This document shows positions 2,064-20,242 of a DNA stretch of 40,920 nt, piece after piece. Location of the stretch: assembly GCA_947632155.1 (NCBI GenBank), contig CANROF010000020.1:1-40920 (forward strand), read 5' to 3'. The notes under the pieces were generated by a model. That model was given only the letters and a program-made list of their open reading frames with translations. It did no database searches and had not been told where the DNA came from. Origin of the DNA: an uncultured Oscillospiraceae bacterium. GTDB lineage: Bacteria; Bacillota; Clostridia; Oscillospirales; Oscillospiraceae. Made by a program: the position numbers and the translations under genes. The first letter of the stretch is position 1; each line of letters opens with the position of its first letter.

Positions 2064-2770
<707 letters not shown>

Positions 2771-2774
<4 letters not shown>

Positions 2775-2936
2775 AAGGCCTGGCGGCCTTTCAGTGCCAA
2801 AGGGGAACCTGCGGAAGTTTTTTCTGAATTCTGCGGAATTCAGAAAAAATTTCCTGCTGTCACGCTGCGCGCGCCGCAAGCGGCACACTTGCGTGACAAA
2901 AGGGATTTTTCTCAAGGCACATGTCCTTGAGAAAAA
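2771..2936 (+). repeat. Multi-hairpin intergenic repeat, copy 1
   Basis: Four consecutive hairpins. Stem 1 pairs 2771-2780 with 2785-2794 (10 bp). Stem 2 pairs 2818-2831 with 2836-2849 (14 bp, loop TGCG). Stem 3 pairs 2858-2865 with 2891-2898, with an inner GCCGC/GCGGC stem at 2873-2884. Stem 4 pairs 2906-2917 with 2925-2936 (12 bp). Linkers TGCGGAA, CTGCTGTC and GACAAAAGG are shared with the copies at 7665 and 16355, while the stem arms differ but stay complementary. It lies between purC and purF. It may be a transcribed 3'-UTR RNA, or the footprint of a palindromic mobile element. No transposase or target-site duplication is apparent. Confidence 0.85.
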
Positions 2937-3016
2937 TATATGAAAAAAATCTACGGTTGCACCGCTCAAAACTGAATGATCTGGTTTTGCAATGGGGCAG
3001 AAGGGATTCATAGCTT

Positions 3017-4447
3017 ATGGATAGCTTTGACCATATCCATGAGGAGTGCGGCGTATTCGGGATATACGCCGCAAATCCTTTTCATGTGGGAAATACTGTA
3101 TATTACGGCCTCTACGCCCTCCAGCACCGGGGGCAGGAGAGCTGCGGGATCACCGTCTCCAACAACGGGCGCTTCACCACCCACAAGGACCTGGGGCTGG
3201 TGAGCGACGTGTTCACCCCCGAGGAGCTGGAAAAGTTAGGGGAGGGGAGCATGGCGGTGGGGCACGTGCGCTACGGCACCACCGGCAATTCCGGGCGCGA
3301 GAACGCCCAGCCCATTGTGGTGAGCCACTTCACCGGGGCGCTGGCCACGGTCCACAACGGGAATTTGACCAACGCCGGGGAGCTCCGCCACGAGCTGGAG
3401 AGCCGCGGGGCCATCTTCCACACCACCTCGGACACGGAGATCATCTCCTACGTCCTGACCCAGGAGCGGCTGGAGACGTACACCCCGGAGGACGCGGTCC
3501 TGCGGGCCATGAACCGCTTAAAGGGCGCCTACTCCCTTATTTTGATGCTGGAGGACAAGCTCATCGCCGTCCGGGACAAGAACGGCTTCCGGCCCCTGTG
3601 CTACGGGCGCAACGGCCACGGGGATTATATCATCGCCTCGGAGACTTGCGCCCTCAGCTCCGTCTCCGCCGAGTACATCCGGGATATAAAGCCCGGGGAG
3701 GTGGTGGTATTCGACAAAACCGGCGTCCACAGCCTTTCGGATAACTGCGGCAAGGCCCCGGAGGCCCTGTGCATCTTCGAGTATATCTACTTTGCCCGCC
3801 CGGACTCCCGCATCGACGGGGCGTCCATCCACCACGCCCGGCTTCGCGCCGGGAAATTCCTGGCCCAGGACTACCCGGTGGAGGCGGACATCGTCATCGG
3901 CGTCCCGGACTCCGGCACCGACGGGGCCATCGGCTACGCCAAGGAGAGCGGCATCCCCTACGACATCGGCCTTATCAAAAACAAGTATATCGGCCGCACG
4001 TTCATAAGCCCCGGCCAGAAGTCCCGGGAAACCGGCGTGCGGATAAAGCTCAACGCCGTCCGGGAGACGGTGGAGGGCAAGCGGGTGGTTTTGGTGGACG
4101 ACTCCATCGTGAGGAGCACCACCATCGCCCGGACTGTCGCCATCCTCCGGGAGGCCGGAGCCACCCAGGTCCACGTCCGCATCACCGCGCCGCCGTTTTT
4201 GAACCCCTGCTATTACGGGGTGGACATCGACTCCCGGGAGAACCTCATCGCCTGCAAGTACACCGTTCCGGAGATCTGCCAGCTCATCGGCGCGGACTCC
4301 CTGGGGTATCTGGACATCCGCCACTTAAACGAGCTCCCGGGAAATGAGGGCCACACCTACTGCACCGCCTGCTTCACCGGCGACTACAAGACGCGCCTGC
4401 CGGAGGAGACGAAGCGGGATATGTTCGAAAAACCGGATAACGCATAG
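3017..4447 (+). CDS. purF: Amidophosphoribosyltransferase (glutamine PRPP amidotransferase)
   Basis: First committed step of purine synthesis: PRPP plus glutamine gives phosphoribosylamine. The 476-residue product starts with a 10-residue propeptide (MDSFDHIHEE) before CGVFGIY; Cys11 would become the N-terminal nucleophile after processing. The N-terminal Ntn glutaminase domain includes LQHRGQES and HVRYGTTG. The phosphoribosyltransferase domain has the PRPP loop VVLVDDSIVRSTT (about residues 357-369). A C-terminal YCTACFTG segment and Cys in ACKYT match ligands of the 4Fe-4S cluster in the B. subtilis-type enzyme. AAGGGA at 3001-3006 precedes the ATG by 10 bp. A multi-hairpin repeat separates it from purC, so it may have its own promoter, though none is clear at 2937-3016. 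Confidence 0.97.
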   Translation: MDSFDHIHEECGVFGIYAANPFHVGNTVYYGLYALQHRGQESCGITVSNNGRFTTHKDLGLVSDVFTPEELEKLGEGSMAVGHVRYGTTGNSGRENAQPIVVSHFTGALATVHNGNLTNAGELRHELESRGAIFHTTSDTEIISYVLTQERLETYTPEDAVLRAMNRLKGAYSLILMLEDKLIAVRDKNGFRPLCYGRNGHGDYIIASETCALSSVSAEYIRDIKPGEVVVFDKTGVHSLSDNCGKAPEALCIFEYIYFARPDSRIDGASIHHARLRAGKFLAQDYPVEADIVIGVPDSGTDGAIGYAKESGIPYDIGLIKNKYIGRTFISPGQKSRETGVRIKLNAVRETVEGKRVVLVDDSIVRSTTIARTVAILREAGATQVHVRITAPPFLNPCYYGVDIDSRENLIACKYTVPEICQLIGADSLGYLDIRHLNELPGNEGHTYCTACFTGDYKTRLPEETKRDMFEKPDNA

Positions 4448-4450
4448 GAC

Positions 4451-4482
4451 TGTCGGAAAAGCCCGTCAGGGCTTTTTCGACA
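4451..4482 (+). repeat. Solitary hairpin resembling stem 1 of the multi-hairpin repeat
   Basis: Arms 4451-4464 and 4469-4482 pair over 14 bp with a single G:T pair, loop GTCA. The sequence is nearly identical to stem 1 of the element copy at 16355-16386 (TGTCGAAAAAGCCC arms), but none of the other three hairpins follows. It lies just after purF and directly before a normal terminator. It could be a decayed or founder piece of the repeat family, or part of a tandem terminator. Confidence 0.7.
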
Positions 4483-4487
4483 GCCTG

Positions 4488-4516
4488 AAAGGGGACCTTT
4501 TCGGTCCCCTTTTATT
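4488..4516. terminator. Bidirectional terminator between convergent purF and yhaM
   Basis: AAAGGGGACC (4488-4497) pairs with GGTCCCCTTT (4503-4512) around a TTTTC loop and is followed by TTATTGT. The A-tract before and T-tract after allow it to work in both directions, which suits the convergent genes: purF ends at 4447 on the plus strand and yhaM ends at 4520 on the minus strand. Confidence 0.85.
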
Positions 4517-4519
4517 GTA

Positions 4520-5467
4520 TCATCCGTGCTTATATATCTTTTTGTCCAGCGCGAAGATGCGTTGGCTGAACTGGCCGGGGGATAGGGGCTCTAAGTTTTC
4601 GCGGTAGATCTCCATGCGGCTGTCGATGAGGTCGATGTAGGAGAGGAGCTCCGCCTCGGCGCACATGGGGCGGACGGCGGCGCCGAACTCCGGCTCGCCG
4701 TGGTGGGAGAGGAGCATGTGCTCCAAAAGCACCGCCTTTTCCTCCGGAGTGCCCAGCCTTTTGGCGGCCTCCGCCACCTCGCCGGCGCCCATGACCAGGT
4801 GCCCCAGAAGCTCGCCGCTGACGGAGTACTCCGTCACCAGACCCAGCTCCGTGAAGAGAAATTCCCGCTCCTTGCCGATGTCGTGGAGGCACGTCCCGGC
4901 CAGCAGGAGGCTCCTGTCCACGGTGCCGGCATAGAGCGTTGAGAGGAGATCCGCCTGCCGGACCATGTTGAGCGTGTGCATCAAAAGGCCGTTTAAAAAG
5001 CTGTGGTGGACGCTCTTGGCCGCCGGAATGGTCCGGAGAGCCTCGCCGTGGCGCTGGAGCACGTCCCGGCACACCGCCCGGTAATCGGGGTCGGCGATGG
5101 AGTCCACGAATTTCAGAAGCTCCGCCCAGGACGCCTCCGGGTCGATGGGAGCCGTGGGCACCAGCGACGCCGGGTCGTAGGCATCGCCGTCCTCGGCAAG
5201 GCGTATCTTGTCCACGTTCACCTGGAGGGCGCCGCGAAACTCCGTGACGGTCCCGCGTATTTTCAGGACCTGCCCCTCGTCCGCGGGGCCGATGGAGCCG
5301 TGGTAGTCCCAGACCTTGGCGTCCACGTCGCCGGTGGCGTCGCCCAGCACGGCGCTTAAAAAGGGCTTTCCGTTGGAGGATATTTTCGCCGCGGCGGACC
5401 TTAAAATGTAGAACCCCTCAAAGGTGTCGCCCACGCGCATATCCGAGACGCTGAGATCTTGTTCCAT
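4520..5467 (-). CDS. yhaM: 3'-5' exoribonuclease YhaM-like (OB fold plus HD domain)
   Basis: About 315 residues, the YhaM family length (B. subtilis YhaM is a 3'-5' exoribonuclease with some DNase activity). The first ~85 residues form an OB-type nucleic-acid-binding region (FEGFYILRSAAAKISSNGKP, then KVWDYHG). The HD domain follows, with SVHHSFLNGLLMHTLNM and AGTCLHDIGKEREF, then LLSHHGEPEFG, supplying the metal-binding His/Asp residues. Two in-frame ATGs exist at 5473 and 5467. I chose 5467 because GAGGG (5474-5478) is 6 bp upstream of it but abuts the other. In B. subtilis yhaM lies with yhaO and yhaN; here those genes are on the opposite strand 4 kb away. Confidence 0.9.
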   Translation of the reverse strand: MEQDLSVSDMRVGDTFEGFYILRSAAAKISSNGKPFLSAVLGDATGDVDAKVWDYHGSIGPADEGQVLKIRGTVTEFRGALQVNVDKIRLAEDGDAYDPASLVPTAPIDPEASWAELLKFVDSIADPDYRAVCRDVLQRHGEALRTIPAAKSVHHSFLNGLLMHTLNMVRQADLLSTLYAGTVDRSLLLAGTCLHDIGKEREFLFTELGLVTEYSVSGELLGHLVMGAGEVAEAAKRLGTPEEKAVLLEHMLLSHHGEPEFGAAVRPMCAEAELLSYIDLIDSRMEIYRENLEPLSPGQFSQRIFALDKKIYKHG

Positions 5468-5496
5468 ATCCATCCCTCACAAATCATTTTACCTCT

Positions 5497-5523
5497 ATTA
5501 TATCACCGAAAAAGTTTTTTTCA
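5497..5523 (-). promoter_or_regulatory. Probable sigma-A promoter for yhaM (extended -10)
   Basis: On the minus strand TATAAT (complement of 5497-5502) is preceded by TGA, giving an extended -10. TTGAAA (complement of 5518-5523) lies 15 bp upstream. The start codon is about 30 bp downstream. It faces away from the beta-helix gene promoter at 5542-5569. Confidence 0.6.
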
Positions 5524-5541
5524 ACGGGAAAATGCCGCGTC

Positions 5542-5569
5542 TTGACATTTGGGCGAGAGGGAATATAAT
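5542..5569 (+). promoter_or_regulatory. Consensus sigma-A promoter for the beta-helix gene
   Basis: TTGACA at 5542-5547 and TATAAT at 5564-5569 with a 16-bp spacer: both hexamers match consensus exactly. Predicted start near 5576 leaves a leader of about 55 nt with AAGGCGGG before the ATG at 5631. I see no operator-like palindrome beside it, so strong constitutive expression is plausible. Confidence 0.8.
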
Positions 5570-5630
5570 AAAAATGGTTGAATAAAACCCTAAATTCCAT
5601 TAAATAAATATTTCTGAAAGGCGGGATACC

Positions 5631-7658
5631 ATGTCGCAGCGCATCTGGCAGACAAGAGCATTCGGTCAGTCCACGGACCTCAATATGACCTCCACGCTGA
5701 AGCTCCCGGAGTACGCCCATAAGGTGGGCGTCAACACGGCGTATGTCTCGGAGGACGGCTCCGTCACCGTGGAGAGCCGCGGCGGCAAGATCGCCGGCGG
5801 CCACGACGGTATGGCGTACCACTACGTAAAGCTGGACCCGGACCGGGAGACGTTCCGCCTCTCGGCGCGGGTGAGGCCCCTCAACTACGGGCGCCTGGGC
5901 ACCCAGGACCTGCCCCAGCAGTGCGGCTTTGGCATCATGGCCCGGGACGCCCTGGGCACGGCCCGGCGGGACCCCTTTGACCCGGCCTTCCAGGAGCTGC
6001 CCGCGGCGTCCAATATGGTCTTCGTCGGCGTCCTGGCGGGGAGCCGCCAGGAGAACGAGCCCGTGGCCGTCTGCCGCCGGGGCGTGGCCAACATCCACGA
6101 TCTGGTGGGCGTGGAGCTCACTGAGCGCGGCATCCCGGGGGCAAGGACCATCGTCACCGGCGGGGAGGGCGTGCGCATGGAGCTGGGCCGGGACGGCCGG
6201 GGCTTCTACGCCGCCGTGGAGAGGCCCGACGGGACCATGTCGGAGCGCGTCTACCCCGAGGGATGCGGCGCGAATCTTCTCCAGCAGCTTGAGGGGGACG
6301 CCATGTACGTGGGCTTCTTCGCCTCCCGCAACGCCGAGGTCCGGTTTGAGGACATCGACCTTGAGATCGAGCCCTTCACGCCCCCGGCGGAGCTCCCGGA
6401 GCTCTGGCGGCCGGAGAATCACAACGTCCGGCCGAAGCTCTTCCTGCGCTCCGGGACCTACTCCTCCTCGGAGAGGTACATCCTGACCTTCCACGGCAAC
6501 AAGAGCGGCCTTGTGTACGTCAGCCGCGACGGGGAGAGCCTTGGCACCGCGGAGCTTTTGGACCGCCGCCCCTCCAACATGGAATTGCGTCTCCACCCGG
6601 GGGAGAACCGGCTGCGCTGCGATTACGACTTCCCCTCCGGGAGCCTCACGGAGACTTTCGCCGTCACCTACGAGCCCTCGGCGTACCCCAGCGACGTCCT
6701 CTGGGCCGCCCCCGACGGCGACCCCGACGCCCCGGGCACCAGGGAGGAGCCCGCCAGTCTCGCCGGGGCCGTCCGGCGATTGGGACAGGGCGGGACGGTC
6801 TACCTCCTGGAGGGCGTCTATAACGAGACGCTGCGCCTGGGGCCGGAGGATTCAGGCGCGCTGGACGCGGTAAAGACCGTGATGCCGGATGAGGGCGCGA
6901 AGGTGGTCTTCAAAAACGCGGGGCTCAAGCTGGGCGCCAACTTCTGGCACGTCTACGGCCTTGAGTTCACCGGAAAGCGCTCCGATGTCACCGGGAGCTT
7001 CAACACCGTGGAGCGCTGCCTCTTCCACCACTGCGACGAGACGGGCTTCCAGCTCGGCGGCGGTATGCCGGAGGGCTTCCAGTTCGCCTGGCCCTGCTAC
7101 AACACCGTCCGGGACTGCGAGTCCTACGGCAACCGGGACCGGCAGAACATGAACGCCGACGGCTTCGCCCCGAAATTGGGCGTGGGGCCGGGGAACGTAT
7201 TCGAGGGGTGCATCTCCCACGGGAACGTGGACGACGGCTTCGACCTCTACAACAAGGTGGAGAAGGGACCCAACGCCCCCGTGACGCTGCGCAACTGCGT
7301 GGCCTACGAGAACGGCGTCTGGGTGGACCCGGAGGACCCCGCCCACGTCATCGCCGGCGGCGGAGGCGGCAACGGCTTCAAGCTGGGCGGCGAGGGCATG
7401 CCCGTGGGGCACGTGGTGGAAAACTGCGTGTCGTTCAAAAACTCCATGGCGGGCTTTTCGGACAACTTCAACCCCGGGGCTCTGCGCGTCACCGGCTGTA
7501 CCGCCGTGGACAACCAGCAGCAGAATTTCATCTTCCGGGATAACCCCGTCTCCGCCCCCAGGGGCGTCTACCGCCGGAACATCTCCATCCGCACCGCCCC
7601 CAGCGCCTGGCACGACTCCGTCACCGGCGACGCGGACGGGACAAACAGGTTTATTTGA
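5631..7658 (+). CDS. Right-handed parallel beta-helix protein, pectate-lyase-like, without signal peptide
   Basis: 675 residues. The first ~215 residues look like a beta-sandwich/jelly-roll region (YHYVKLDPDRETFRLSARVR, then CGFGIMARDA), followed by a linker rich in Pro and Glu. From about residue 365 a parallel beta-helix begins (GTREEPASLAGAVRRLGQGG is a typical first rung). It has repeated turn motifs such as NTVERCLFHHCDETGFQL, YNTVRDCESYGNRD and NVFEGCISHGNVDDGFDLY. Such proteins include PL9-like pectate lyases and other polysaccharide lyases or hydrolases. The N-terminus is hydrophilic with no signal peptide or lipobox, so a cytoplasmic product acting on imported oligosaccharides, or a non-classical route, is implied. 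Substrate is unknown. It stands alone between its own promoter and a multi-hairpin repeat. Confidence 0.85.
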   Translation: MSQRIWQTRAFGQSTDLNMTSTLKLPEYAHKVGVNTAYVSEDGSVTVESRGGKIAGGHDGMAYHYVKLDPDRETFRLSARVRPLNYGRLGTQDLPQQCGFGIMARDALGTARRDPFDPAFQELPAASNMVFVGVLAGSRQENEPVAVCRRGVANIHDLVGVELTERGIPGARTIVTGGEGVRMELGRDGRGFYAAVERPDGTMSERVYPEGCGANLLQQLEGDAMYVGFFASRNAEVRFEDIDLEIEPFTPPAELPELWRPENHNVRPKLFLRSGTYSSSERYILTFHGNKSGLVYVSRDGESLGTAELLDRRPSNMELRLHPGENRLRCDYDFPSGSLTETFAVTYEPSAYPSDVLWAAPDGDPDAPGTREEPASLAGAVRRLGQGGTVYLLEGVYNETLRLGPEDSGALDAVKTVMPDEGAKVVFKNAGLKLGANFWHVYGLEFTGKRSDVTGSFNTVERCLFHHCDETGFQLGGGMPEGFQFAWPCYNTVRDCESYGNRDRQNMNADGFAPKLGVGPGNVFEGCISHGNVDDGFDLYNKVEKGPNAPVTLRNCVAYENGVWVDPEDPAHVIAGGGGGNGFKLGGEGMPVGHVVENCVSFKNSMAGFSDNFNPGALRVTGCTAVDNQQQNFIFRDNPVSAPRGVYRRNISIRTAPSAWHDSVTGDADGTNRFI

Positions 7659-7664
7659 ACTGGC

Positions 7665-7831
7665 TTTGAAGCCCGGAGGGCTTCAAATGCCATGGGGACA
7701 CTTGCGGAATCCCCTGGCTGAATTTTGCGAAATTCAGCCAGGGGATTCCTGCTGTCGCCCTGCGCGCGCCGCAAGCGGCACACTTGGGCGACAAAAGGAA
7801 TTTTTTCCAAGGCACATGTCCTTGGAAAAAA
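7665..7831 (+). repeat. Multi-hairpin intergenic repeat, copy 2
   Basis: Same four-hairpin layout as at 2771. Stem 1 pairs 7665-7674 with 7678-7687. Stem 2 pairs 7710-7725 with 7730-7745 (16 bp, loop TGCG). Stem 3 pairs 7753-7760 with 7786-7793 around the same GCCGC/GCGGC inner stem. Stem 4 pairs 7801-7812 with 7820-7831. The outer arms of stem 2 are G/C-rich here but A/T-rich in the other copies, and both arms change together. It begins 7 bp after the beta-helix stop codon and ends before a terminator-like hairpin at 7851. Confidence 0.85.
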
Positions 7832-7850
7832 TAATGAATTTGAGCTGTAG

Positions 7851-7872
7851 GGGCCGCCTCTCTTGGCGGCCC
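7851..7872 (+). repeat. Solitary GTAGGGGCC-type hairpin, possible weak terminator
   Basis: GGGCCGCC (7851-7858) pairs with GGCGGCCC (7865-7872), loop TCTCTT. With the preceding GTAG it belongs to the same hairpin family as the array at 13057-13406 (GTAGGGG followed by a short inverted repeat ending in CCC). The trailing CTCCCTTTTAT gives only a weak T-tract, so termination activity is uncertain. Confidence 0.55.
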
Positions 7873-7928
7873 TCTCCCTTTTATCCCCGTTTTTTGTCAA
7901 AAAGGGGGTTTTCTGTTTTGGGGGTTTG

Positions 7929-7937
7929 TGTTATAAT
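7929..7937 (+). promoter_or_regulatory. Extended -10 promoter for the cardiolipin synthase gene
   Basis: TGTTATAAT is a complete extended -10 element (TGnTATAAT, TATAAT at 7932-7937). The -35 region 17 bp upstream (TTTCTG-like) is poor, as is common for extended -10 promoters. The ATG at 7970 lies about 25 nt from the expected start, preceded by CGGAGG. Confidence 0.65.
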
Positions 7938-7969
7938 AAAATGTATTATTATTATCTCGGAGGCGCGGC

Positions 7970-9550
7970 ATGTCGGTCCCTGTCACTACTGATAACAAAA
8001 AGAAGATAAAGCGCGGCTTCTGGACCGTGGTCACCGGGCGCACGTTCATCGTCGTGGTGCTGCTGGCGGCGCAGGTGGGACTGCTGCTGTGGGGGTTTGA
8101 GAGGCTGGGCAATTACATCCATCTCGGCTCCGCCCTGGCCGCGGCGCTGATGCTCATCTACATCGCCAACTCCCGCTCCGACCCCACGGTGAAGCTCACC
8201 TGGTGCTTCGTGGTGGCGCTGGTGCCGGTGGTGGGGATACCCCTCTACTTCTTCATAAAGCTGGACATCGGCCACAGGGCCGTCCAGAGGTCCATCTCCA
8301 GGTGCGTCAACGAGACGATGCCCTATTTCCCCATACACCCGAAGTCCGAGGAGGAGGACGTGGTCCGTGCCATGCGCGACACCGACCCCGACGCCGCCTC
8401 CATCGCCGTGTACCTCCGGGACAGGGCGGGCTTCCCGCCCTACCGGGGCTCGGACGTTCAGTACTTCCCCCTGGGGGAGAACAAATTCGAGGCCATGCTC
8501 CGGGAGCTGGAGGCCGCGGAGCGGTTTATCTTCATGGAGTATTTCATCGTCTCCGAGGGCCGGATGTGGGACTCCATCCTGGAGATCCTGACCCGCAAGG
8601 CCAGGGCCGGGGTGGAGGTGCGCTTCATGTACGACGGCACCAACGCCTTCTCGAACCTGCCCAACGCCTATCCGAAGCAGCTTGAGGCCCGGGGCATAAA
8701 GTGCAAGGTCTTCGCCCCCGTGCGGCCCTTTGTGTCCACCCACTACAATAACCGCGACCACCGGAAGATCCTGGTGGTGGACGGCCGGGTTGCCTTTACC
8801 GGCGGGGTGAACCTGGCCGACGAGTATATAAACGAGAAGGTCCGCTTCGGCCACTGGAAGGACACGGCCATCATGGTGCGGGGCGAGGCCGTCCGGTCCT
8901 TTACGCTGATGTTTTTGCAGATGTGGCAGAGCTCCGAGCCCGCGGGGGGCTGCTACTATGAGCAGTACCTGCCGGACCCGCGTTCCATCCGCGTGGACGC
9001 CCCCGGCGTCGTCATCCCCTACGGCGACAGCCCCATGGACAACGAGCGGGTGGGGGAGACGGTGTATCTGCACCTTATCAACACCGCGGTCCGTTACGTC
9101 CACATCATGACGCCGTATCTCATCCTGGACGGCGAGACTGCCATGGCGCTGACCTCGGCGGCCAAGCGGGGGGTGGACGTGCGCATTATTCTGCCCCACA
9201 TCCCGGACAAGACCTACGCCTTCTGGCTGGCCAAGAGCCACTATAAGGAGCTTTTGGACGCCGGGGTGAAGCTGTACGAGTACACCCCCGGCTTCATCCA
9301 CGCCAAGGTCTTCCTCCAGGACGACCGGATGGGCGTGGTGGGGACGGTGAATTTGGACTACAGGAGCCTCTACCACCACTTTGAGTGCGCGGCGCTGCTG
9401 TGCGGCGTCCCGGCGCTGGAGGACATCAAAAAGGACTTCGCCCAGACGCTGGCGGCCTCCCACCGGGTGACCCGGGAGGACGCCGCCCACGAAAAGCTGC
9501 ACGTCAAGTTCTTCGGGGGGCTTTTGAAGATCGTGGCGCCCCTGATGTGA
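7970..9550 (+). CDS. cls: Cardiolipin synthase (phospholipase D family)
   Basis: Membrane enzyme that condenses two phosphatidylglycerol molecules into cardiolipin and glycerol. The 526 residues have three hydrophobic N-terminal segments: residues about 24-42, 50-62 and 70-92. Two HxK(x)4D catalytic motifs follow, in HYNNRDHRKILVVDGR (about residues 260-275) and FIHAKVFLQDDRMG (about 443-456), each followed by a G-G/T-x-N segment (TGGVNLAD, VGTVNLDYRS). Length and layout match bacterial ClsA-type enzymes of Firmicutes. It is followed 25 bp later by yhaO, so the three genes may share a transcript, but a functional link to DNA repair is not implied. Confidence 0.95.
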   Translation: MSVPVTTDNKKKIKRGFWTVVTGRTFIVVVLLAAQVGLLLWGFERLGNYIHLGSALAAALMLIYIANSRSDPTVKLTWCFVVALVPVVGIPLYFFIKLDIGHRAVQRSISRCVNETMPYFPIHPKSEEEDVVRAMRDTDPDAASIAVYLRDRAGFPPYRGSDVQYFPLGENKFEAMLRELEAAERFIFMEYFIVSEGRMWDSILEILTRKARAGVEVRFMYDGTNAFSNLPNAYPKQLEARGIKCKVFAPVRPFVSTHYNNRDHRKILVVDGRVAFTGGVNLADEYINEKVRFGHWKDTAIMVRGEAVRSFTLMFLQMWQSSEPAGGCYYEQYLPDPRSIRVDAPGVVIPYGDSPMDNERVGETVYLHLINTAVRYVHIMTPYLILDGETAMALTSAAKRGVDVRIILPHIPDKTYAFWLAKSHYKELLDAGVKLYEYTPGFIHAKVFLQDDRMGVVGTVNLDYRSLYHHFECAALLCGVPALEDIKKDFAQTLAASHRVTREDAAHEKLHVKFFGGLLKIVAPLM

Positions 9551-9575
9551 GGCCGCCTGTCGGAGGTGAAAAAGA

Positions 9576-10664: not shown

Positions 10665-12952
10665 AGATAAGAAAGCTCTCGGCCACCTTCGGGAAGCTCA
10701 AAAACGCAAAGCTTGAGCTGGGGGACGGCCTCAACATCATCTCCGCCCCCAACGAATACGGAAAATCCACCTGGTGCGGCTTCATAAACGCCATGCTCTA
10801 CGGCGTGGACACCTCCGAGCGGGACAAGGCCGGGTACCTGTCCACCAAGACGCGCTACCGCCCCTGGGACGGCGGGGCCATGGTGGGCACCGCGGAGCTG
10901 GAGGCCGGCGGTCGGGAGATCACCGTCCAGCGCACGGCCAGGGGCTCCAGCCCCATGAAAAACTTCATCGCCGTCAAGACCGGCACCGCGGAATTTTTGC
11001 GGGACCTCACCGGCGAGACCGCCGGGGAGGCGCTTACCGGCGTCACCCGCGGGGTCTTCGAGCGCACGGCCTTCATCCGCCGGGCGGACATCCGCGTGAA
11101 TCAGACCGCGGATCTGGAGAAAAAGATCGCGGATATAGTCTCCACCGGCGACGAGAGCACGTCGTACTCCGGCTCCGCCGCCCTCCTGGGGCGCTGGCAG
11201 AGGAAGCTCCGGTACAACAAATCCGGCACGCTTCCGGCCATGGAGCAGGAGCTGGCCGCCCAGCGCCGGGCGCTGGAGAAGATACACGAGTCCTCCGAGG
11301 AGGCGGCGGGCCTGCGCTCCACCATGTCAAGGCTGGAAAAGCAGCTCGATATGATGCGCCAGGACCTGGTCATCCACGATAAGCTGGATAAGCGCGCCGC
11401 CGCGCGGCGGCTCAAAGAGGCGAAGCACAGCGCCGAGACTGCCGAGGAGGACGTCCGGCGCCTCACCGCCGCCGTCACGAAAAACGGCAAGCGCATGACC
11501 CGGGAGGACATCACCTCCATCCGCGAGACGGCCGCCGCCGTCATGCCCCTTAAAAAAGTGGCAAACGACGCGGAGCGGGCCCTGTGGCGGGCGGAGAAGG
11601 AGCTGGTGGACGCCGACGCCCGCCGGTCGGCGTCGCCGCTCCACGGCAGGGACGACGGGAAGCTCAGCGAGGACATACAAAAGGGCCGGGAGCTGGAGCG
11701 GAAGGCCCGGGAGAAAAAGGACCCGAAAATCCCTAAATTCATCCCCATTATCCTGTGCGTGCTGGCCGTTTTGGGCCTTGTGCTGACCACGGGGCTGTTG
11801 GAGCCGGCGCTGAAGAACATCCCCGGGACCGCCGGACTGTTCGAATTTGACCTCATAGGGGTCGCGGCGTCCCTTGCCATAGGCGCCGCGGGGCTGGTGC
11901 TCTTCTTCGTAAAGCCCAGGCGTCGCCGCTCGCCGGAGGACGATCTGAGGGAGCTGTTGGACGGTTACGGCGTGCCCTCGGTGGAGAAGCTGGCCTCTCT
12001 CAGGGAGGCCTACAAGGCCCTGACGGCCGACGAGGACCGGCTTCGCGCCGCCCGGGACGCCGCCAGGAGCGCCTATGAGAGCGCCGGGACCGCCGCCCAG
12101 GAGGCGGGGGAGCGGGCCGTCAGGGAGCTTTCGGCGTTCATGCCGGAGATCTCCTCCGGCGAGGCGGTGCTGGACGCCCTGAACGAGACGGAGCGGGAGA
12201 TCGACGAGCTCACCCGCGCCGAGTTCGACGCCGTGGCGGCCCGGAATGTCTATGAGACGCTGCTGGCCGAATATGACCCGTCGGAGGAGCCGGACGACAC
12301 CTTCCTGCCCACGCCCATGAGGAGCCGGGAGGACACCCTGGCGGCTATCGAGCGCATAAACGCCCAGCTCTCCGCCGCCACCAGGGACTACGATTTGGCC
12401 TCCGGCGGCCAGAGGACCCTGGGCGACCCCGCCGTCATCGAGGGCCGCATCCGGGAGCTTGAGGAGCGCATCGAGGCGGACAACCGCCGGTACAGCGCCC
12501 TGACGCTGGCCATCGACACCCTGGCGGAGGCCAACACCCAGCTCCAGACCCGCTTCTCCCCGGAGGTCAGCCGCCGGGCGGGGGAAATCCTGAGCCGCCT
12601 CACCGGGGGAAAATATGAGCGCCTTTACTTTGACAAGGGCTTCGACGCCTCGGCAAAGGAAGAGGACGGCGTGGAGGCCCACAACGTCCTGACGCTCTCC
12701 GACGGCACCGGGGACGAGATCTACCTCTCCCTGCGGCTGGCCATGTGCGAGCTCATCTTGGGCGGCGACGACCCCTGCCCCATCATTCTGGACGACGCCC
12801 TGGCCAATTTCGATGACGCCAGATGCCGCCGGGCCCTGGAGCTTCTGGCGGAGCTTTCGGAAAAGCGCCAGATCATCCTCTTCACCTGCCACACCCGCGA
12901 GGCCGACATGCTCTCAGCCCGCCCGGGCGTCAATATCATCCGGGAGCAGTAA
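10661..12952 (+). CDS. yhaN: YhaN-like ATPase, SbcC/Rad50-related, with central membrane segments
   Basis: About 763 residues. The N-terminal ATPase half has Walker A SAPNEYGKSTW (around residues 27-37). The C-terminal half has LTLSDGTGDEIYLSLRLA (signature region) and Walker B PIILDDALANFDD. Between them are coiled-coil regions and, unlike SbcC, two hydrophobic helices (KFIPIILCVLAVLGLVLTTG and DLIGVAASLAIGAAGLVLFF, about residues 360-430), which mark the YhaN subgroup. I place the start at GTG 10661 because AGAGAGGAG (10644-10652) lies 8 bp upstream, and the product then begins (M)KIRKLSATFGK as relatives do. A GTG at 10652 sits inside the ribosome binding site. It overlaps the yhaO stop. 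The pair probably forms a membrane-associated nuclease complex. Confidence 0.9.
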   Translation: MKIRKLSATFGKLKNAKLELGDGLNIISAPNEYGKSTWCGFINAMLYGVDTSERDKAGYLSTKTRYRPWDGGAMVGTAELEAGGREITVQRTARGSSPMKNFIAVKTGTAEFLRDLTGETAGEALTGVTRGVFERTAFIRRADIRVNQTADLEKKIADIVSTGDESTSYSGSAALLGRWQRKLRYNKSGTLPAMEQELAAQRRALEKIHESSEEAAGLRSTMSRLEKQLDMMRQDLVIHDKLDKRAAARRLKEAKHSAETAEEDVRRLTAAVTKNGKRMTREDITSIRETAAAVMPLKKVANDAERALWRAEKELVDADARRSASPLHGRDDGKLSEDIQKGRELERKAREKKDPKIPKFIPIILCVLAVLGLVLTTGLLEPALKNIPGTAGLFEFDLIGVAASLAIGAAGLVLFFVKPRRRRSPEDDLRELLDGYGVPSVEKLASLREAYKALTADEDRLRAARDAARSAYESAGTAAQEAGERAVRELSAFMPEISSGEAVLDALNETEREIDELTRAEFDAVAARNVYETLLAEYDPSEEPDDTFLPTPMRSREDTLAAIERINAQLSAATRDYDLASGGQRTLGDPAVIEGRIRELEERIEADNRRYSALTLAIDTLAEANTQLQTRFSPEVSRRAGEILSRLTGGKYERLYFDKGFDASAKEEDGVEAHNVLTLSDGTGDEIYLSLRLAMCELILGGDDPCPIILDDALANFDDARCRRALELLAELSEKRQIILFTCHTREADMLSARPGVNIIREQ

Positions 12953-12964
12953 AACGCAAAAAGC

Positions 12965-13000
12965 CATCGCCGCGCACCTCGGTGCGCGGCGATGATGTTT
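12965..13000 (+). terminator. Rho-independent terminator after yhaN
   Basis: CATCGCCGCGCACC (12965-12978) pairs with GGTGCGCGGCGATG (12981-12994) over 14 bp with a two-base turn, followed by ATGTTTT. It closes the cls-yhaO-yhaN unit 12 bp after the yhaN stop. Confidence 0.8.
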
Positions 13001-13056
13001 TCTGAAGGCGTATTGCGCCATAATAAACGAAAAATCCGATTTCAACGTCCACCAGT

Positions 13057-13406
13057 TCCGTAAGGGCCGGACACCGTGCCGGCCCGTTCTCCCGATTCGC
13101 TCATACCTCCCGACAAAAAACTTAACCCCAATTTCCGCCGTAGGGGCCGATGACCACATCGGCCCGTGCCGCGATTTCGGATAACCCCAAAATCATCGCG
13201 AAAACCCCTGAATTTGGCGTAAGGGCCGGACACCGTGCCGGCCCGTCCCTCCGATTCGCAACTGTCTCCCCGAAGACGCATAATCCCAAAACCTCGCCGT
13301 AGGGGTCGCCGTCTCGGCGACCCGTTCTACCGGGTTACAACACCCTCCGTTCACGGGATGCTGCGAAAAACGAAGGAACGGGCCGACACGGTGTCCGGCC
13401 CTTACG
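13057..13406. repeat. Array of five GTA(A/G)GGGCC hairpins, about 80-bp period
   Basis: Four direct units start with CGTAAGGG or CGTAGGGG near 13059, 13139, 13218 and 13298. Each contains a short perfect inverted repeat ending in CCCGT: 13064-13085, 13144-13165, 13223-13244 and 13303-13323. A fifth unit at 13379-13406 is inverted. Stem sequences differ: units 1 and 3 have GGGCCGG arms, unit 2 GGGCCGATG, unit 4 GGGTCGCCG, all perfectly paired. The DNA between hairpins shares fragments such as CGATTCGC and runs of CCCCAA. A single related hairpin is at 7851. It fills the gap between yhaN and mutS2 and holds no plausible gene. Such GTAGGGG palindromes occur scattered in many genomes; a tandem arrangement is less usual. 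Confidence 0.8.
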
Positions 13407-13432
13407 ACATGCTTAGGTCCTTTTCCCCGCAC

Positions 13433-13461
13433 TTGAAAACGGGACAATTGTATGGTAGAAT
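13433..13461 (+). promoter_or_regulatory. Probable sigma-A promoter for mutS2
   Basis: TTGAAA (13433-13438) and TAGAAT (13456-13461) are separated by 17 bp. The predicted start near 13468 gives a leader of about 35 nt with GGAGG at 13491-13495. Confidence 0.7.
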
Positions 13462-13503
13462 TATAAAATAAGAATGCTGTATATCCCCACGGAGGCGATC
13501 GAA

Positions 13504-15870
13504 ATGACGCTTTATGAAAAATCTCAGGCTATACTGGAGCTGCCGGCGGTGCTGGAGCTTTTGGCGGCGGAGGCCGTGTCCGACGGGGCCAAGGAGGCCG
13601 CCAGGCTCCTGACCCCCTCCTCCGACAAGGCGGAGGTGGAAAAGCGGCTCCAGGAGACGACCGACGCCCGGGAGCTCATGACCCTCCACTCCGCGCCCTC
13701 CTTTTCCGGGGTGAAGGACATCCGGGACAGCCTCCGCCGGGCCGACGCCGGGGGGATGCTGAACACCCGGGAGCTGACGGACATCGCCCAGGTCCTCCGG
13801 GAGGCCCGGAGCGCCATCGCCTACGCCTCCGGCGACGAGAAGGGCGCCGGGAGCATCGGGTATCTCTTCTCCTCCCTCCACGCCAACAAGTATCTTGAGG
13901 AAAAAATCACCAATTCCATCATCGGCGAGGGGGAGCTGGCGGACTCCGCCTCCGCGGAGCTTGCGGACATCCGCCGGGCCATGCGCGTGGCGGGGAGCCG
14001 TGTACGGGAGGCCCTCCAGAAAATCATCACCTCCCCCAGCTACGCCAAGGTGCTCCAGGAGCCCATCATCACCATGAAAAACGGCCGCTACGTGGTGCCG
14101 GTGAAGGCCGAGCACAAGGGGGCCGTGCCGGGGCTCACCCACGACATCTCCTCCTCCGGCGCCACGCTCTTCATCGAGCCCATGAGCGCCGTGAAGGCAA
14201 ACAACGAGATCCGGGAGCTGCTGGCCCGGGAGGAGCGGGAGATCGAGCGCATTTTGCGGGAGCTCTCCGCCGAGGCCTCGGATTTCGGGGAGGACATAGC
14301 CCTCGACTATAACGTCCTCACCGAGCTCGACCTCATTTTCGCCAAGGCCAAGCTGAGCTACCGCCTCAACTGCGCCTGCCCCGCGCTCTCCGACGGCGGG
14401 GAAATCGTCCTCAAAAAGGCCCGACACCCCCTTTTGAAGCAGTCCGAGGCCGTGCCCATCGACATCGAGCTGGGCGTGGACTTCGACACCCTGGTCATCA
14501 CCGGCCCCAACACCGGCGGCAAGACGGTGAGCCTCAAGACCCTGGGGCTTCTGAGCCTCATGACCCAGTGCGGCCTCCACATCCCGGCGGGGGACGAGAG
14601 CCGCCTGCCCCTTTTCGAGAAGGTCCTGGCGGACATCGGCGACGAGCAGTCCATCGAGCAGTCCCTCTCCACCTTCTCCTCCCACATGACCAACATCGTG
14701 GGCATCCTCTCGGAGTGCGGGGAGGGGACCCTGGCGCTCTTTGACGAGCTGGGCGCCGGCACGGACCCGGCGGAGGGCGCGGCGCTGGCCGTGGCCATCA
14801 TCGAGTACTGCCGGTCCCTGGGGGCCAGAATCGCCGCCACCACCCACTACGCGGAGCTGAAGATCTACGCCATGACGGAAAAGGGCGTCATGAACGCCTC
14901 CTGCGAGTTTGACGTGAAGACCCTGAAGCCCACCTACCGGCTCTTGATGGGCATCCCCGGCAAGTCCAACGCCTTCGCCATCTCCCAGCGCTTAGGGCTT
15001 CCCGGGCACATCATCGACGACGCCCGCCGGCGGATGGACAAGGTGGACACCGACTTTGAGGAGGCCCTCTCGAAGTTAGAGGAGAACCGCAAGGCCGCCG
15101 AGGAGCGAAAGGCCCAGACCGACGCGGCCCTCCAGAAGGCCCGCGACGACCTGACGGCGGCGGAGAAGGAGCGCCGGAGAGCCGAGGAGGAGCGCCTGAA
15201 ATTCACCAAAAACGCCCGCAGCGAGGCCGAGCGCATCTTAGAGGACGCGAGACGCGCCGCGGACGAGGCCTTCCGGGAAATCGAGCGGATGCGCCGGGAG
15301 GCCGCGTCGGACACCGACTGGCAGCGCCTCAACGAGGCCAAGGCCAGGCTGCGCCACGACTTGAACGAAGCCGCCGCCAAGGTGACGCCGGAGGGCGCGA
15401 AGCCCGTGGAGCGGCAGCGCACCCGGGACGCGGAGGCGGGGGACACGGTGGAGATCGTCTCCATCGGCACCAGGGCCCAGGTCCTCTCCGTGAAGCCCGA
15501 CGGGACGCTGGAGCTCCAGGCGGGTATCATGAAGGTCACGGCCCGCCAGGACGAGGTCCGGGTAGTGGAGGCGGAGAAGCCCAAGACGAGGCCCGCCGCG
15601 GTCCACGTCCCCGTCTCCACCGAGAGCGCCAAATCCGAGCTGGACGTCCGGGGCATGACGGCGGACGAGACGGTGGCGCTGGTGGAGCGCTTCATCGACG
15701 GCGCCCAGATGCGCCACGTGAACACCGTCACCATCATCCACGGCAAGGGCACCGGGGTCCTCCGGAAGGCCGTCCACGAGTGCCTGAAGCGCTCAAAGCA
15801 GGTGAAGAGCTACCGCCTGGGGCGCTTCGGCGAGGGCGAAAGCGGCGTCACCATCGTGGAGATTCGTTGA
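13504..15870 (+). CDS. mutS2: Endonuclease MutS2
   Basis: 788 residues, the expected MutS2 length. MutS2 is a MutS-family ATPase linked to suppression of recombination and to rescue of collided ribosomes. It lacks mismatch-binding domain I. The ATPase has Walker A TGPNTGGKTVSLKT (Lys about residue 340) and Walker B ALFDELGAGTDP. A long Arg/Glu/Ala-rich coiled coil covers about residues 515-625. The C-terminal Smr nuclease domain (from about residue 712) has LDVRGMTADE and the HGKGTGVLR motif. I start at ATG 13504 because GGAGG (13491-13495) is 8 bp upstream; an in-frame ATG at 13474 has no ribosome binding site and lies close to the -10. Confidence 0.95.
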   Translation: MTLYEKSQAILELPAVLELLAAEAVSDGAKEAARLLTPSSDKAEVEKRLQETTDARELMTLHSAPSFSGVKDIRDSLRRADAGGMLNTRELTDIAQVLREARSAIAYASGDEKGAGSIGYLFSSLHANKYLEEKITNSIIGEGELADSASAELADIRRAMRVAGSRVREALQKIITSPSYAKVLQEPIITMKNGRYVVPVKAEHKGAVPGLTHDISSSGATLFIEPMSAVKANNEIRELLAREEREIERILRELSAEASDFGEDIALDYNVLTELDLIFAKAKLSYRLNCACPALSDGGEIVLKKARHPLLKQSEAVPIDIELGVDFDTLVITGPNTGGKTVSLKTLGLLSLMTQCGLHIPAGDESRLPLFEKVLADIGDEQSIEQSLSTFSSHMTNIVGILSECGEGTLALFDELGAGTDPAEGAALAVAIIEYCRSLGARIAATTHYAELKIYAMTEKGVMNASCEFDVKTLKPTYRLLMGIPGKSNAFAISQRLGLPGHIIDDARRRMDKVDTDFEEALSKLEENRKAAEERKAQTDAALQKARDDLTAAEKERRRAEEERLKFTKNARSEAERILEDARRAADEAFREIERMRREAASDTDWQRLNEAKARLRHDLNEAAAKVTPEGAKPVERQRTRDAEAGDTVEIVSIGTRAQVLSVKPDGTLELQAGIMKVTARQDEVRVVEAEKPKTRPAAVHVPVSTESAKSELDVRGMTADETVALVERFIDGAQMRHVNTVTIIHGKGTGVLRKAVHECLKRSKQVKSYRLGRFGEGESGVTIVEIR

Positions 15871-15905
15871 GTGCGGCGCGGTTTGTCAAAATCGCACTAA
15901 TTTTT
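15870..15905 (+). terminator. Possible weak terminator after mutS2
   Basis: AGTGCG (15870-15875) can pair with CGCACT (15893-15898), followed by AATTTTT. The stem is only 6 bp with a large loop, so this is tentative. Confidence 0.35.
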
Positions 15906-15940
15906 CACGTTTTGGGCATAATATTCAACACTATTATTTC

Positions 15941-15969
15941 TTGACGGGCAAGTGCGCGTTTGATAGAAT
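15941..15969 (+). promoter_or_regulatory. Sigma-A promoter for the HPr-like gene
   Basis: TTGACG (15941-15946) and TAGAAT (15964-15969) are 17 bp apart, and a TG dinucleotide at 15961-15962 makes the -10 extended. The leader of about 55 nt ends in AAGGAGGGG before the ATG at 16034. Confidence 0.8.
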
Positions 15970-16033
15970 ACAGAATAAGTATTACTGACCACCAGGCGCG
16001 GGTCATACCGGCGCGATTTTAAGGAGGGGCAAT

Positions 16034-16297
16034 ATGTTCGTTAAAACAGTCGAGGTTATGAACCAGGTCGGTCTTAGGGCCAGGCCCGCCACTTTCTTCA
16101 CCCAGAAGGCCAACGATTTCAAGTGCCAGGTCTGGATCGAGAAGGACGAGCGCCGCGTCAACGCCAAGAGCCTCCTGGGCGTGCTGTCCCTTGGTATCAT
16201 CAAGGGCATGACCGTCTCCATCTCCGCCGACGGGGAGGACGAGGAGCGCGCCGTTGAAACGCTCTGCGAGCTCATCACCCGCGATTTTGCCGAGTAA
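16034..16297 (+). CDS. crh: HPr-family protein, Crh-like (Arg in place of His15)
   Basis: 87 residues with the HPr fold signature. The active-site segment reads VGLRARPATFF, so residue 15, the histidine phosphorylated by enzyme I in HPr, is Arg (codon AGG at 16076-16078). The regulatory serine is kept as Ser46 in RVNAKSLLGVLSLGI. This is the pattern of B. subtilis Crh, which has Gln15 and Ser46, cannot carry phosphate for sugar uptake, and acts as a CcpA co-regulator when phosphorylated by HprK. The flanking segments (FFTQKANDFKCQVWIEKDER) also resemble Crh more than HPr. It is a single-gene unit with a strong promoter and terminator. Function as a regulator rather than a PTS carrier is inferred; ccpA and hprK are not in this window. 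Confidence 0.85.
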   Translation: MFVKTVEVMNQVGLRARPATFFTQKANDFKCQVWIEKDERRVNAKSLLGVLSLGIIKGMTVSISADGEDEERAVETLCELITRDFAE

Positions 16298-16317
16298 TTT
16301 CAAACCGCATCATCAAA

Positions 16318-16351
16318 CGGCCTGTTTCACCCCCTGAAACAGGCCGCTTTA
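16318..16351 (+). terminator. Terminator after the HPr-like gene
   Basis: CGGCCTGTTTCA (16318-16329) pairs with TGAAACAGGCCG (16335-16346), loop CCCCC, followed by CTTTA. A 12-bp perfect stem makes it a convincing terminator despite the short T-tract. Confidence 0.75.
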
Positions 16352-16354
16352 GAA

Positions 16355-16529
16355 TGTCGAAAAAGCCCTGACGGGCTTTTTCGACAGGGGGGAACGTGCG
16401 GAAAAATATTCTGAATTTTGCGAAATTCAGAATATTTTCCCTGCTGTCGATTTTTGCGCACGGCCCGCAGGGCCGCACACGAAAATCGACAAAAGGGATT
16501 TTTCCCGACGTACATGCCGCCGGGAAAAA
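16355..16529 (+). repeat. Multi-hairpin intergenic repeat, copy 3
   Basis: Four hairpins as in copies 1 and 2. Stem 1 pairs 16355-16368 with 16373-16386 (14 bp). Stem 2 pairs 16403-16418 with 16423-16438 (16 bp, loop TGCG). Stem 3 pairs 16445-16454 with 16482-16491, with an inner GGCCC/GGGCC stem at 16462-16474. Stem 4 pairs 16499-16507 with 16521-16529. The inner stem of hairpin 3 is recoded relative to copies 1 and 2, and stem 3 is A/T-rich instead of G/C-rich, yet pairing is kept. It lies between two terminators (16318-16351 and 16558-16590). The downstream TGAATTTGAG is shared with copy 2. Confidence 0.85.
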
Positions 16530-16557
16530 TATTGAATTTGAGTTTGTGACAGACGAT

Positions 16558-16590
16558 GGCCTGCTTCAATATTTGAAGAGGCCGTTTTTC
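16558..16590 (+). terminator. Rho-independent terminator downstream of repeat copy 3
   Basis: GGCCT-G-CTTCAA (16558-16569) pairs with TTGAAGAGGCC (16573-16583) with one bulged G, followed by GTTTTTC. A second complete terminator after the HPr-like gene implies that transcription reaches or starts within the repeat between them. Confidence 0.75.
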
Positions 16591-20036: not shown

Positions 20037-20072
20037 AAAAGTACGAGCAGTAAAACAGAATGCCGCGGTCAA

Positions 20073-20105
20073 CCCCCCGGAGGGTATCCCCTCCGGGGGA
20101 TTTTT
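20073..20105 (+). terminator. Strong terminator after the coiled-coil gene
   Basis: CCCCCGGAGGG pairs with CCCTCCGGGGG around a short loop and is followed by ATTTTT. It ends the uvrC-rsmD-coaD unit before the dcw cluster. Confidence 0.88.
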
Positions 20106-20142
20106 ATGTCCACCGGGGGATTTTTTATGTCCACCGGGGGAG
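20098..20142 (+). repeat. Short tandem duplication of the terminator tail
   Basis: A unit reading GGGGGATTTTTATGTCCACC occurs twice in a row, with an extra T in the second copy and a third partial CCACCGGGGG. It looks like slippage duplication of the terminator's 3' arm and T-tract. Confidence 0.65.
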
Positions 20143-20242
20143 GGGAAAAAAGGCGGCGGGGGCGGGCTCACAGCATATTTTGTGGGAAACTCGTTATGTC
20201 AACACAACTCAGAAATTATTTTGACAAATTTGAAAAAACTTC

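What the first reader, a model, noticed from the sequence alone, without database searches (positions are those of the whole stretch)
2771..16529. A family of four-hairpin, ~170-bp intergenic elements with compensatory changes in the stems
Three copies (2771-2936, 7665-7831, 16355-16529), all on the plus strand and all just after a gene, share one architecture of four consecutive hairpins. The arms differ between copies but stay fully paired. Stem 2 outer arms are TTTTTT/AAAAAA, TCCCCTGG/CCAGGGGA and AAAATATT/AATATTTT. Stem 3 is TGTCACGC/GCGTGACA, TGTCGCCC/GGGCGACA and TGTCGATTTT/AAAATCGACA. Loops and linkers (TGCG, TGCGGAA, CTGCTGTC, GACAAAAGG, ACATG) are conserved. That is the signature of selection on structure, as for a non-coding RNA, or of an element copied through hairpin DNA. 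I do not know a described RNA family with this layout. Covariation is seen directly; function is unknown.
Basis: partly seen in the sequence, partly recalled or inferred. Interest (0 to 1): 0.8.

Follow-up and report, generated by a model that had tools for sequence, protein, structure and literature searches.

The report
Mobile modular hairpin repeats at gene ends
The three four-hairpin elements belong to a family of more than a hundred scattered, apparently mobile DNA repeats in an uncultured bacterium; they sit at the ends of genes, and their paired stems keep matching although the stem sequence is often replaced wholesale.

Summary
Observation confirmed. The genome holds at least 141 copies, and 32 of 34 genomes of the genus have at least one match. 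Covariation is strong: 29 of 56 pairs change on both sides, shuffles 17.1. No Rfam match. The elements behave as a mosaic, non-autonomous mobile repeat. Class A has imperfect inverted ends (CAGN-CTGTC ... GACANN-CTG) and flanking repeats, often a whole terminator-like hairpin: 38 of 89 copies share at least 12 bp, swapped controls 0.1%; 37 of 80 in other species. Class B follows a stop triplet by 0-2 nt in 30 of 39. Related species show filled and empty sites. G-U pairs are rare on the gene-sense strand (45 of 7534 pairs, A-C 188), so the stems lack the usual signature of selection on a gene-sense RNA. Hairpin exchange plus palindrome correction in DNA, or folding of the other strand, fits better but is inferred. 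Nearest known kind: Yersinia YPAL, then pneumococcal BOX. No mobiliser was found; ISAs1 and a tyrosine transposase were tested and not supported. An effect on mRNA is inferred only.

The parts
2766..2938 (+). copy 1 (class B, stem 1 begins CTGGC); overlaps the stop codon (2772-2774) of the frame 2064-2774
   Evidence: covariance-model hit E 2.2e-46; frame
2766..2799 (+). copy 1 hairpin 1
2811..2857 (+). copy 1 hairpin 2 with its GCGG/CCTGC base
2858..2898 (+). copy 1 hairpin 3
2905..2937 (+). copy 1 hairpin 4
4450..4487 (-). solo hairpin like stem 1 of class A, ends CAG...CTG, after the next gene's stop
   Evidence: pattern hits, sequence, place
7660..7833 (+). copy 2 (class B), 1 nt after the stop codon of the frame 5631-7658
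   Evidence: covariance-model hit E 1.2e-46
7660..7692 (+). copy 2 hairpin 1
7704..7752 (+). copy 2 hairpin 2
7753..7793 (+). copy 2 hairpin 3
7800..7832 (+). copy 2 hairpin 4
16317..16350 (+). terminator-like hairpin before copy 3; a single such hairpin follows the same upstream gene in relatives without the element
16354..16531 (+). copy 3 (class A type), 56 nt after a stop codon
   Evidence: covariance-model hit E 7.0e-42
16355..16386 (+). copy 3 hairpin 1
16400..16440 (+). copy 3 hairpin 2
16445..16491 (+). copy 3 hairpin 3
16498..16530 (+). copy 3 hairpin 4
16556..16589 (+). second terminator-like hairpin after copy 3; at best a diverged duplicate of 16317-16350 (20 of 34 positions identical, ungapped)

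Best explanation
A family of modular, multi-hairpin, non-autonomous mobile repeats (core about 175 bp; own-genome forms from 84 to 246 bp) that accumulate at the 3' ends of genes, mostly in gene-sense orientation. SHOWN by sequence: at least 141 copies in this genome; class A ends CAGN-CTGTC ... GACANN-CTG; flanking direct repeats of class A, many of them whole terminator-like hairpins; class B 0-2 nt after stop triplets; filled and empty orthologous sites; hairpin types in many combinations. INFERRED: class A transposes into terminators, so that the element lies between two copies of the terminator hairpin and is transcribed as 3' UTR before the copy that keeps the T-run. Class B came by an older or different route, often between genes of one strand. 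Stems stay paired because hairpins are exchanged among copies at the conserved linkers and because near-perfect palindromes are corrected arm-to-arm in DNA, or because a single strand other than the mRNA must fold. LIKELY EFFECT, not shown: the co-transcribed hairpins change processing or stability of the upstream or intercistronic mRNA, as proposed for YPAL.
For: Copy number and control. Flanking repeats: class A 38 of 89 own copies and 37 of 80 in other species share at least 12 bp across the element, swapped-flank controls 0.1% and 0; sequences of the repeats and element ends. Stop-codon spacing: 35 of 39 class B copies have a same-strand upstream gene, 24 of them at 0 or 1 nt. Orientation: class A 73 of 94 same-strand upstream gene. 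Filled and empty sites at purC (8 filled, 10 empty, 9 with another neighbour, of 27) and before uvrC. Mosaic of hairpin types. Near-absence of wobble: 45 G-U in 7534 pairs of 475 unique hairpins. YPAL behaviour from passages of PMC2229807.
Against: No transposase or autonomous partner was found. Class B shows no flanking repeats in this genome (0 of 39), so its mobility rests on filled and empty sites alone. In other species 43 of 80 class A copies also have a stop triplet within 2 nt, partly because their own 5' end reads TAGA or TGAGA, so the spacing test separates the classes less well there. Palindrome correction and hairpin exchange are inferred; the wobble deficit is partly one ancestor's mismatches and loses significance under stricter dereplication. 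No expression data.
Confidence: 0.6

Rival explanations
1. A structured non-coding RNA or 3'-UTR RNA module read on the + strand and kept by compensatory mutation for its RNA function; copying is incidental.
For: Strong covariation; gene-sense orientation next to gene ends; very stable folds.
Against: G-U pairs are rare on the + strand and fewer than A-C mismatches (45 against 188; distinct contexts 39 against 109), whereas terminator hairpins of the same genome have 13 G-U and 9 A-C in 575 pairs (low power). Sites come and go between species.
Confidence: 0.2
2. The - strand is the molecule that folds: an antisense RNA started in the class A right end, or a single-stranded DNA intermediate.
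For: The - strand folds better in 198 of 215 unique copies and 65 of 75 dereplicated ones; with DNA parameters 68 of 75. A-C on + is G-U on -: stems 3 and 4 in other species 19 against 5. In G042 the - strand folds better in 21 of 30, + in 7. A promoter-like TTGTCA-N17-TATTTT type motif on - is at the right end of 53 of 93 class A copies, though those copies are near-identical.
Against: Stems 1 and 2 in other species are even (29 A-C, 24 G-U); class B has the motif in 1 of 39; most - strand transcripts would be antisense to the upstream gene.
Confidence: 0.15
3. REP-like hairpins moved by a REP-associated tyrosine (Y1) transposase.
For: High-copy palindromic repeats at gene ends; one Y1 gene of this type in the genome (PF01797 over its cut-off; best NCBIfam model REP_Tyr_transpos, 56.5 bits, below its cut-off of 80).
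Against: Relatives of that gene are in 4 of 34 genus genomes while 32 have element matches; no element motif cluster lies beside it in the 2.1 kb held; flanking duplications are not expected of that chemistry (recalled). A second weak Y1 hit (C66:5458) was not characterised.
Confidence: 0.04

Closest known systems
YPAL / RU-2 (Yersinia palindromic sequences; PMC2229807, passages seen)
   Same: About 170 bp, intergenic, internal inverted repeats, target duplications of variable length (3-26 bp there), targets that span or adjoin dyad symmetry, filled and empty sites, proposed effect on upstream transcripts. Recalled only: location closely after stop codons and in rho-independent terminators.
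   Different: Another phylum; four separate hairpins with exchangeable arms; terminal CAG...CTG inverted ends; a second class fixed at stop codons. Sequence similarity to YPAL was not tested.
Pneumococcal BOX elements (PMC3049150, passages seen)
   Same: Modular interspersed repeat (boxA, variable boxB, boxC) with strong secondary structure, often co-transcribed.
   Different: BOX varies by number of boxB units; here whole hairpin arms are replaced while pairing is kept, and terminator-like hairpins are duplicated.
MITEs in general
   Same: Short, non-coding, repeated, inverted ends and flanking direct repeats (class A).
   Different: No parent insertion sequence found; duplications are long and hairpin-shaped; several hairpins instead of one.
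REP/BIME elements
   Same: High-copy palindromes at gene ends; insertion sequences entering a hairpin loop (recalled for BIMEs; here hairpin 4).
   Different: Much longer, four hairpins, no supported link to a Y1 transposase.

Membership tests
YPAL / RU-2 | variable-length target duplications at targets with dyad symmetry | tested here: met
   class A 38 of 89 own, 37 of 80 other species share >=12 bp; repeats listed, many are hairpins
YPAL / RU-2 | sequence homology to Yersinia YPAL | not tested
   no YPAL sequence was fetched or compared
YPAL / RU-2 | element raises level of the transcript that carries it | not testable with these tools
   no expression data
MITE | terminal inverted repeats | tested here: met
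   class A ends read: imperfect, short; class B lacks them
MITE | target-site duplications | tested here: met
   class A yes, class B 0 of 39 own and 2 of 16 elsewhere
MITE | mobilised by a transposase of an insertion sequence with the same ends | tested here: inconclusive
   no such sequence found; ISAs1 copies have other ends
REP elements with REP-associated tyrosine transposase | repeats flank, or co-occur with, the transposase gene | tested here: not met
   gene in 4 of 34 genomes, elements in 32 of 34; none beside it
Functional structured RNA on the + strand | base-pair covariation | tested here: met
   shuffles and slides; R-scape not run
Functional structured RNA on the + strand | wobble pairs tolerated more than A-C mismatches | tested here: not met
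   39 G-U against 109 A-C distinct contexts; even in stems 1 and 2 of other species
Any Rfam family | score above the gathering threshold | tested here: not met
   window 0 matches; 11 loci gave only malK-I and a tRNA, outside the elements
BOX | boxA-boxB(n)-boxC modules | not tested
   no BOX sequence was compared

The most novel reading that the evidence does not exclude
A bacterial transposon-like cassette of exchangeable hairpins that finds its targets by shape (terminator hairpins duplicated whole), evolves by swapping and self-copying its hairpin arms while single-stranded, and so spreads ready-made 3' ends through operons. The stem covariation would then be a product of DNA hairpin copying that looks like RNA selection but lacks its wobble pairs.
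Probability: 0.3. Interest if true: 0.8.

Novelty: new variant of a known kind. Interest (0 to 1): 0.6.

Why it matters
Covariation is the standard argument that an RNA structure is functional. Here more than a hundred copies in one genome covary strongly yet almost without wobble pairs, which suggests that palindrome correction and module exchange in DNA can mimic that argument; the family makes this testable. It also adds a lineage unrelated to Yersinia in which repeats duplicate terminator-like hairpins, and so poses a concrete question about how an insertion machinery sees a hairpin target. If the elements act, they reset 3' ends and operon joints (purC-purF among them) across a genus.

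Tried and rejected
ISAs1 as mobiliser: recalled features (CAG ends, 8-10 bp repeats) prompted the test; 3 hits, 2 of them full genes, but the ends read beside them are CGGCAACAGCAT (by eye), so rejected. REP-type tyrosine transposase: 2 Y1 hits; one looked at, relatives in 4 of 34 genomes, nothing beside it; the other hit was not characterised. DDE_Tnp_1: 6 hits, two of them the ISAs1 genes; flanks of the other four showed no pair of element ends (the ORF picker chose unrelated frames there, so only flanks were judged). L394 has an element beside its transposase but not around it. Solitary ends: 57 right-end matches, 10 without a model hit nearby, all looked at; 98 left-end matches, of which 10 places without a hit were looked at, the window's, and C9:27489 not at all. 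They gave truncated copies, solo hairpins and contig ends inside hairpin 2, no autonomous element.

Controls that were weak or failed: terminator control 13 G-U against 9 A-C in 575 pairs of 48 hairpins; no tRNA control, ARAGORN found one tRNA in 12 loci; wobble asymmetry loses significance when hairpins are dereplicated at 80-85%. 28 of 225 copies could not be split by anchors and were left out; one search used all 265 (256 distinct places). The pattern caught one unrelated place (L016), dropped from the element set. Gene calls come from a home-made codon-usage ORF finder on 615 kb. Own-genome hit count is a lower bound (150 candidates scored); counts in relatives are capped at 46 and single weak hits (for example G016, G027) may not be elements. 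Paper searches returned nothing; in the listings of 34, 56, 61, 63 and 67 no title or abstract start names this family.
Full report
CHECK. The three copies are at 2766-2938, 7660-7833 and 16354-16531, all on +, each with four hairpins. Single-sequence folding is far outside shuffles (z -9.44, -9.04, -8.14). The stem-3 frame CCTGCTGTC...GACAAAAGG occurs three times in the window and in none of 100 shuffles. No Rfam model reaches its gathering score in the window; at E up to 1 the one match, a His_leader at 20068-20199 on -, is below its threshold and lies elsewhere.

FAMILY. In the window's own genome (2.50 Mb, 89 contigs) the stem-3 pattern has 66 matches and its reversed control none; one of them, L016, is not an element. 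A covariance model from 30 copies finds 141 matches at E<=0.01; only 150 candidates were scored, so this is a lower bound, and it includes a few fragments. At about 180 bp each that is about 1% of the genome (my estimate). Among 60 genomes, own included, 33 match at E<=0.001: 32 of 34 in the genus and 1 of 26 outside it, G042, of another family of the same order.

COVARIATION. On 30 own copies 97.4% of 1664 cells pair, 29 of 56 pairs change on both sides, and the covariation score is 0.322 against 0.109 (sd 0.007) in shuffles; none of 500 shuffles reaches any measure; slid partners pair 42-59%. Outer stem 2 is 53% identical between copies, the linkers 87-100%. Stem 1 is replaced outright in several copies and still pairs, for example C8:57635, C30:23099, C1:73271, C42:11267.

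TWO CLASSES. Of 141 own copies 94 are class A (stem 1 mostly TGTCG), 39 class B (CTGGC), 8 other. With my own gene calls, class B has a same-strand upstream gene in 35 of 39, 24 of these at 0 or 1 nt; 28 of 39 lie between two genes of the element's strand. Class A has a same-strand upstream gene in 73 of 94, 39 of these 25-56 nt away. A stop triplet ends 0-2 nt before the element in 30 of 39 class B and 17 of 94 class A own copies, and in 13 of 17 class B but also 43 of 80 class A copies of other species, where the class A 5' end itself often reads TAGA or TGAGA. So the contrast is clear in this genome and confounded elsewhere.

TARGETS. Class A runs from CAGN-CTGTC to GACANN-CTG. Exact stretches of at least 12 bp shared by the two flanks occur in 38 of 89 own copies (swapped flanks 0.1%) and 37 of 80 in other species (0); class B 0 of 39 own and 2 of 16 elsewhere. 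Most of the long ones that I read contain a whole terminator-like hairpin, and the downstream copy keeps the T-run; a few copies have only 7-9 bp abutting both ends, a length that chance alone can give. Half or more of class A copies show no clear repeat. For copy 3 in the window the downstream hairpin is at best a diverged second copy, 20 of 34 positions.

ORTHOLOGOUS SITES. The upstream gene of copy 1 (purC by my reading; not tested with a family model) was found in 27 of 34 genus genomes. Eight carry the element at its end (G000, G025, G015, G001, G006, G019, G031, G010), ten keep the same next gene without it (G033, G011, G028, G002, G023, G012, G020, G005, G022, G032), nine have another neighbour. 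G015, G001 and G019 have hairpins 1 and 4 only. G025 and G019 keep a normal stop codon followed at once by CTGGC; the other six use a TGA inside the element, as if the piece between two CTGGC-like repeats had been lost. Of the five full copies G000 and G010 are near-identical, hairpin 2 of G025, G006 and G031 is unlike theirs, and hairpin 3 of G006 is another type. Before uvrC (Pfam) I read 20 of the 30 loci fetched: full copies after the terminator of the HPr-like gene in G000 and G011 with unrelated arms; a full copy in G018 with the terminator out of view; a reversed remnant in G025; solo hairpins in G005 and G020; eight empty (G013, G031, G022, G033, G015, G017, G002, G006); six without the HPr-like gene in view (G028, G010, G032, G001, G012, G019).

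MODULES. Stem-1 classes, stem-3 types, a 62-nt double hairpin inside stem 3 and stem-4 types occur in many combinations in 141 own copies (many stem-4 forms are lumped as 'other'). Two-hairpin (84 nt) and three-hairpin forms exist. G042 has 51 weaker matches, arrays of other hairpins that share hairpin 4 and end in a further hairpin.

STRAND AND WOBBLE. In 475 unique hairpins of 265 copies 7214 pairs are Watson-Crick, 188 A-C, 45 G-U, 87 other; distinct contexts 109 A-C against 39 G-U, singletons 77 against 34. Terminator hairpins of the same genome have 13 G-U and 9 A-C in 575 pairs. The - strand folds better in 198 of 215 unique copies, + in 10; 65 against 7 of 75 dereplicated. But in other species stems 1 and 2 are even (29 A-C, 24 G-U), the own excess in stem 2 (25 against 4) partly descends from one ancestor, and stricter dereplication loses significance. 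What I hold firmly is that wobble pairs are not favoured on the gene-sense strand. That argues against ordinary compensatory evolution of a + strand RNA and favours arm-to-arm correction of palindromes in DNA with exchange of hairpins, or folding of the other strand (stems 3 and 4 in other species 19 against 5). Both are inferences.

MOBILISER. None found. ISAs1 rejected by its ends; a REP-type tyrosine transposase is too rare in the genus; stray element ends lead to no transposon.

COMPARISON. Passages of PMC2229807 describe YPAL/RU-2: about 168 bp, intergenic, internal inverted repeats, duplications of 3-26 bp, targets spanning or next to dyad symmetry, possible influence on upstream transcripts. 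That is the closest match in behaviour. Passages of PMC3049150 describe modular BOX elements; I saw passages of PMC10969869 and the abstract of PMC2267715, surveys in which nothing I saw names this family. The original YPAL paper was not read. My paper searches listed no title or abstract start that describes it.

VERDICT. A real, large, mosaic family of mobile-looking hairpin repeats at gene ends, a new variant of the YPAL/BOX kind. The RNA reading is weakened by the missing wobble pairs and the hairpin-DNA reading is strengthened; neither is proved.

Noticed in passing
L042 and L059 (contig ends), L272 near 1501, L188 491-672: Another sequence with ends like CTGCTCGTGGGGATATGGAAACATTGTGAACC / GGTTCACTATGTTTCCCTATCCCACGGGGTC lies inside the loop of hairpin 4 (at CAT) in at least three element copies of two species, as if an insertion sequence prefers that loop.
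   Followed up: partly
L271 (around 1300-1490), L139 (around 2290), L276 (after 2027): A second repeat, ATACTAATCCCTGATTAAAAGCTCAAACCGAGCGGCGAGGATTTTT..., with inverted ends, occurs next to or inside copies and looks like another small mobile repeat.
   Followed up: no
L177, L196, L238, L195, L173, L180, L213, L214, L233; own C9:25066: A different insert of about 110 nt (TCGTCGTCGC...CTCTCCCCACGCAATC...) sits inside hairpin 3 of some copies.
   Followed up: no
L116, L320-L348 (genome G042): Another family of the order has arrays of different strong hairpins sharing hairpin 4 and ending in TTTCGCGCC..GGCGCGAAACTCTGCGAGG; one begins at a tRNA-Pro gene.
   Followed up: partly
L133 15019-15198 (-): malK-I RNA (Rfam RF03069, 98.1 bits) in the same genome, outside the elements.
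   Followed up: no
window 33038-40918: Open reading frame of 2627 aa running off the contig; by eye a large repeat-rich surface protein, not tested with a family model.
   Followed up: no
L254 and purC loci of G000, G006, G010, G031, G015, G001: The stop codon of the upstream gene is supplied by the element itself, apparently after loss of the piece between two CTGGC-like repeats.
   Followed up: partly
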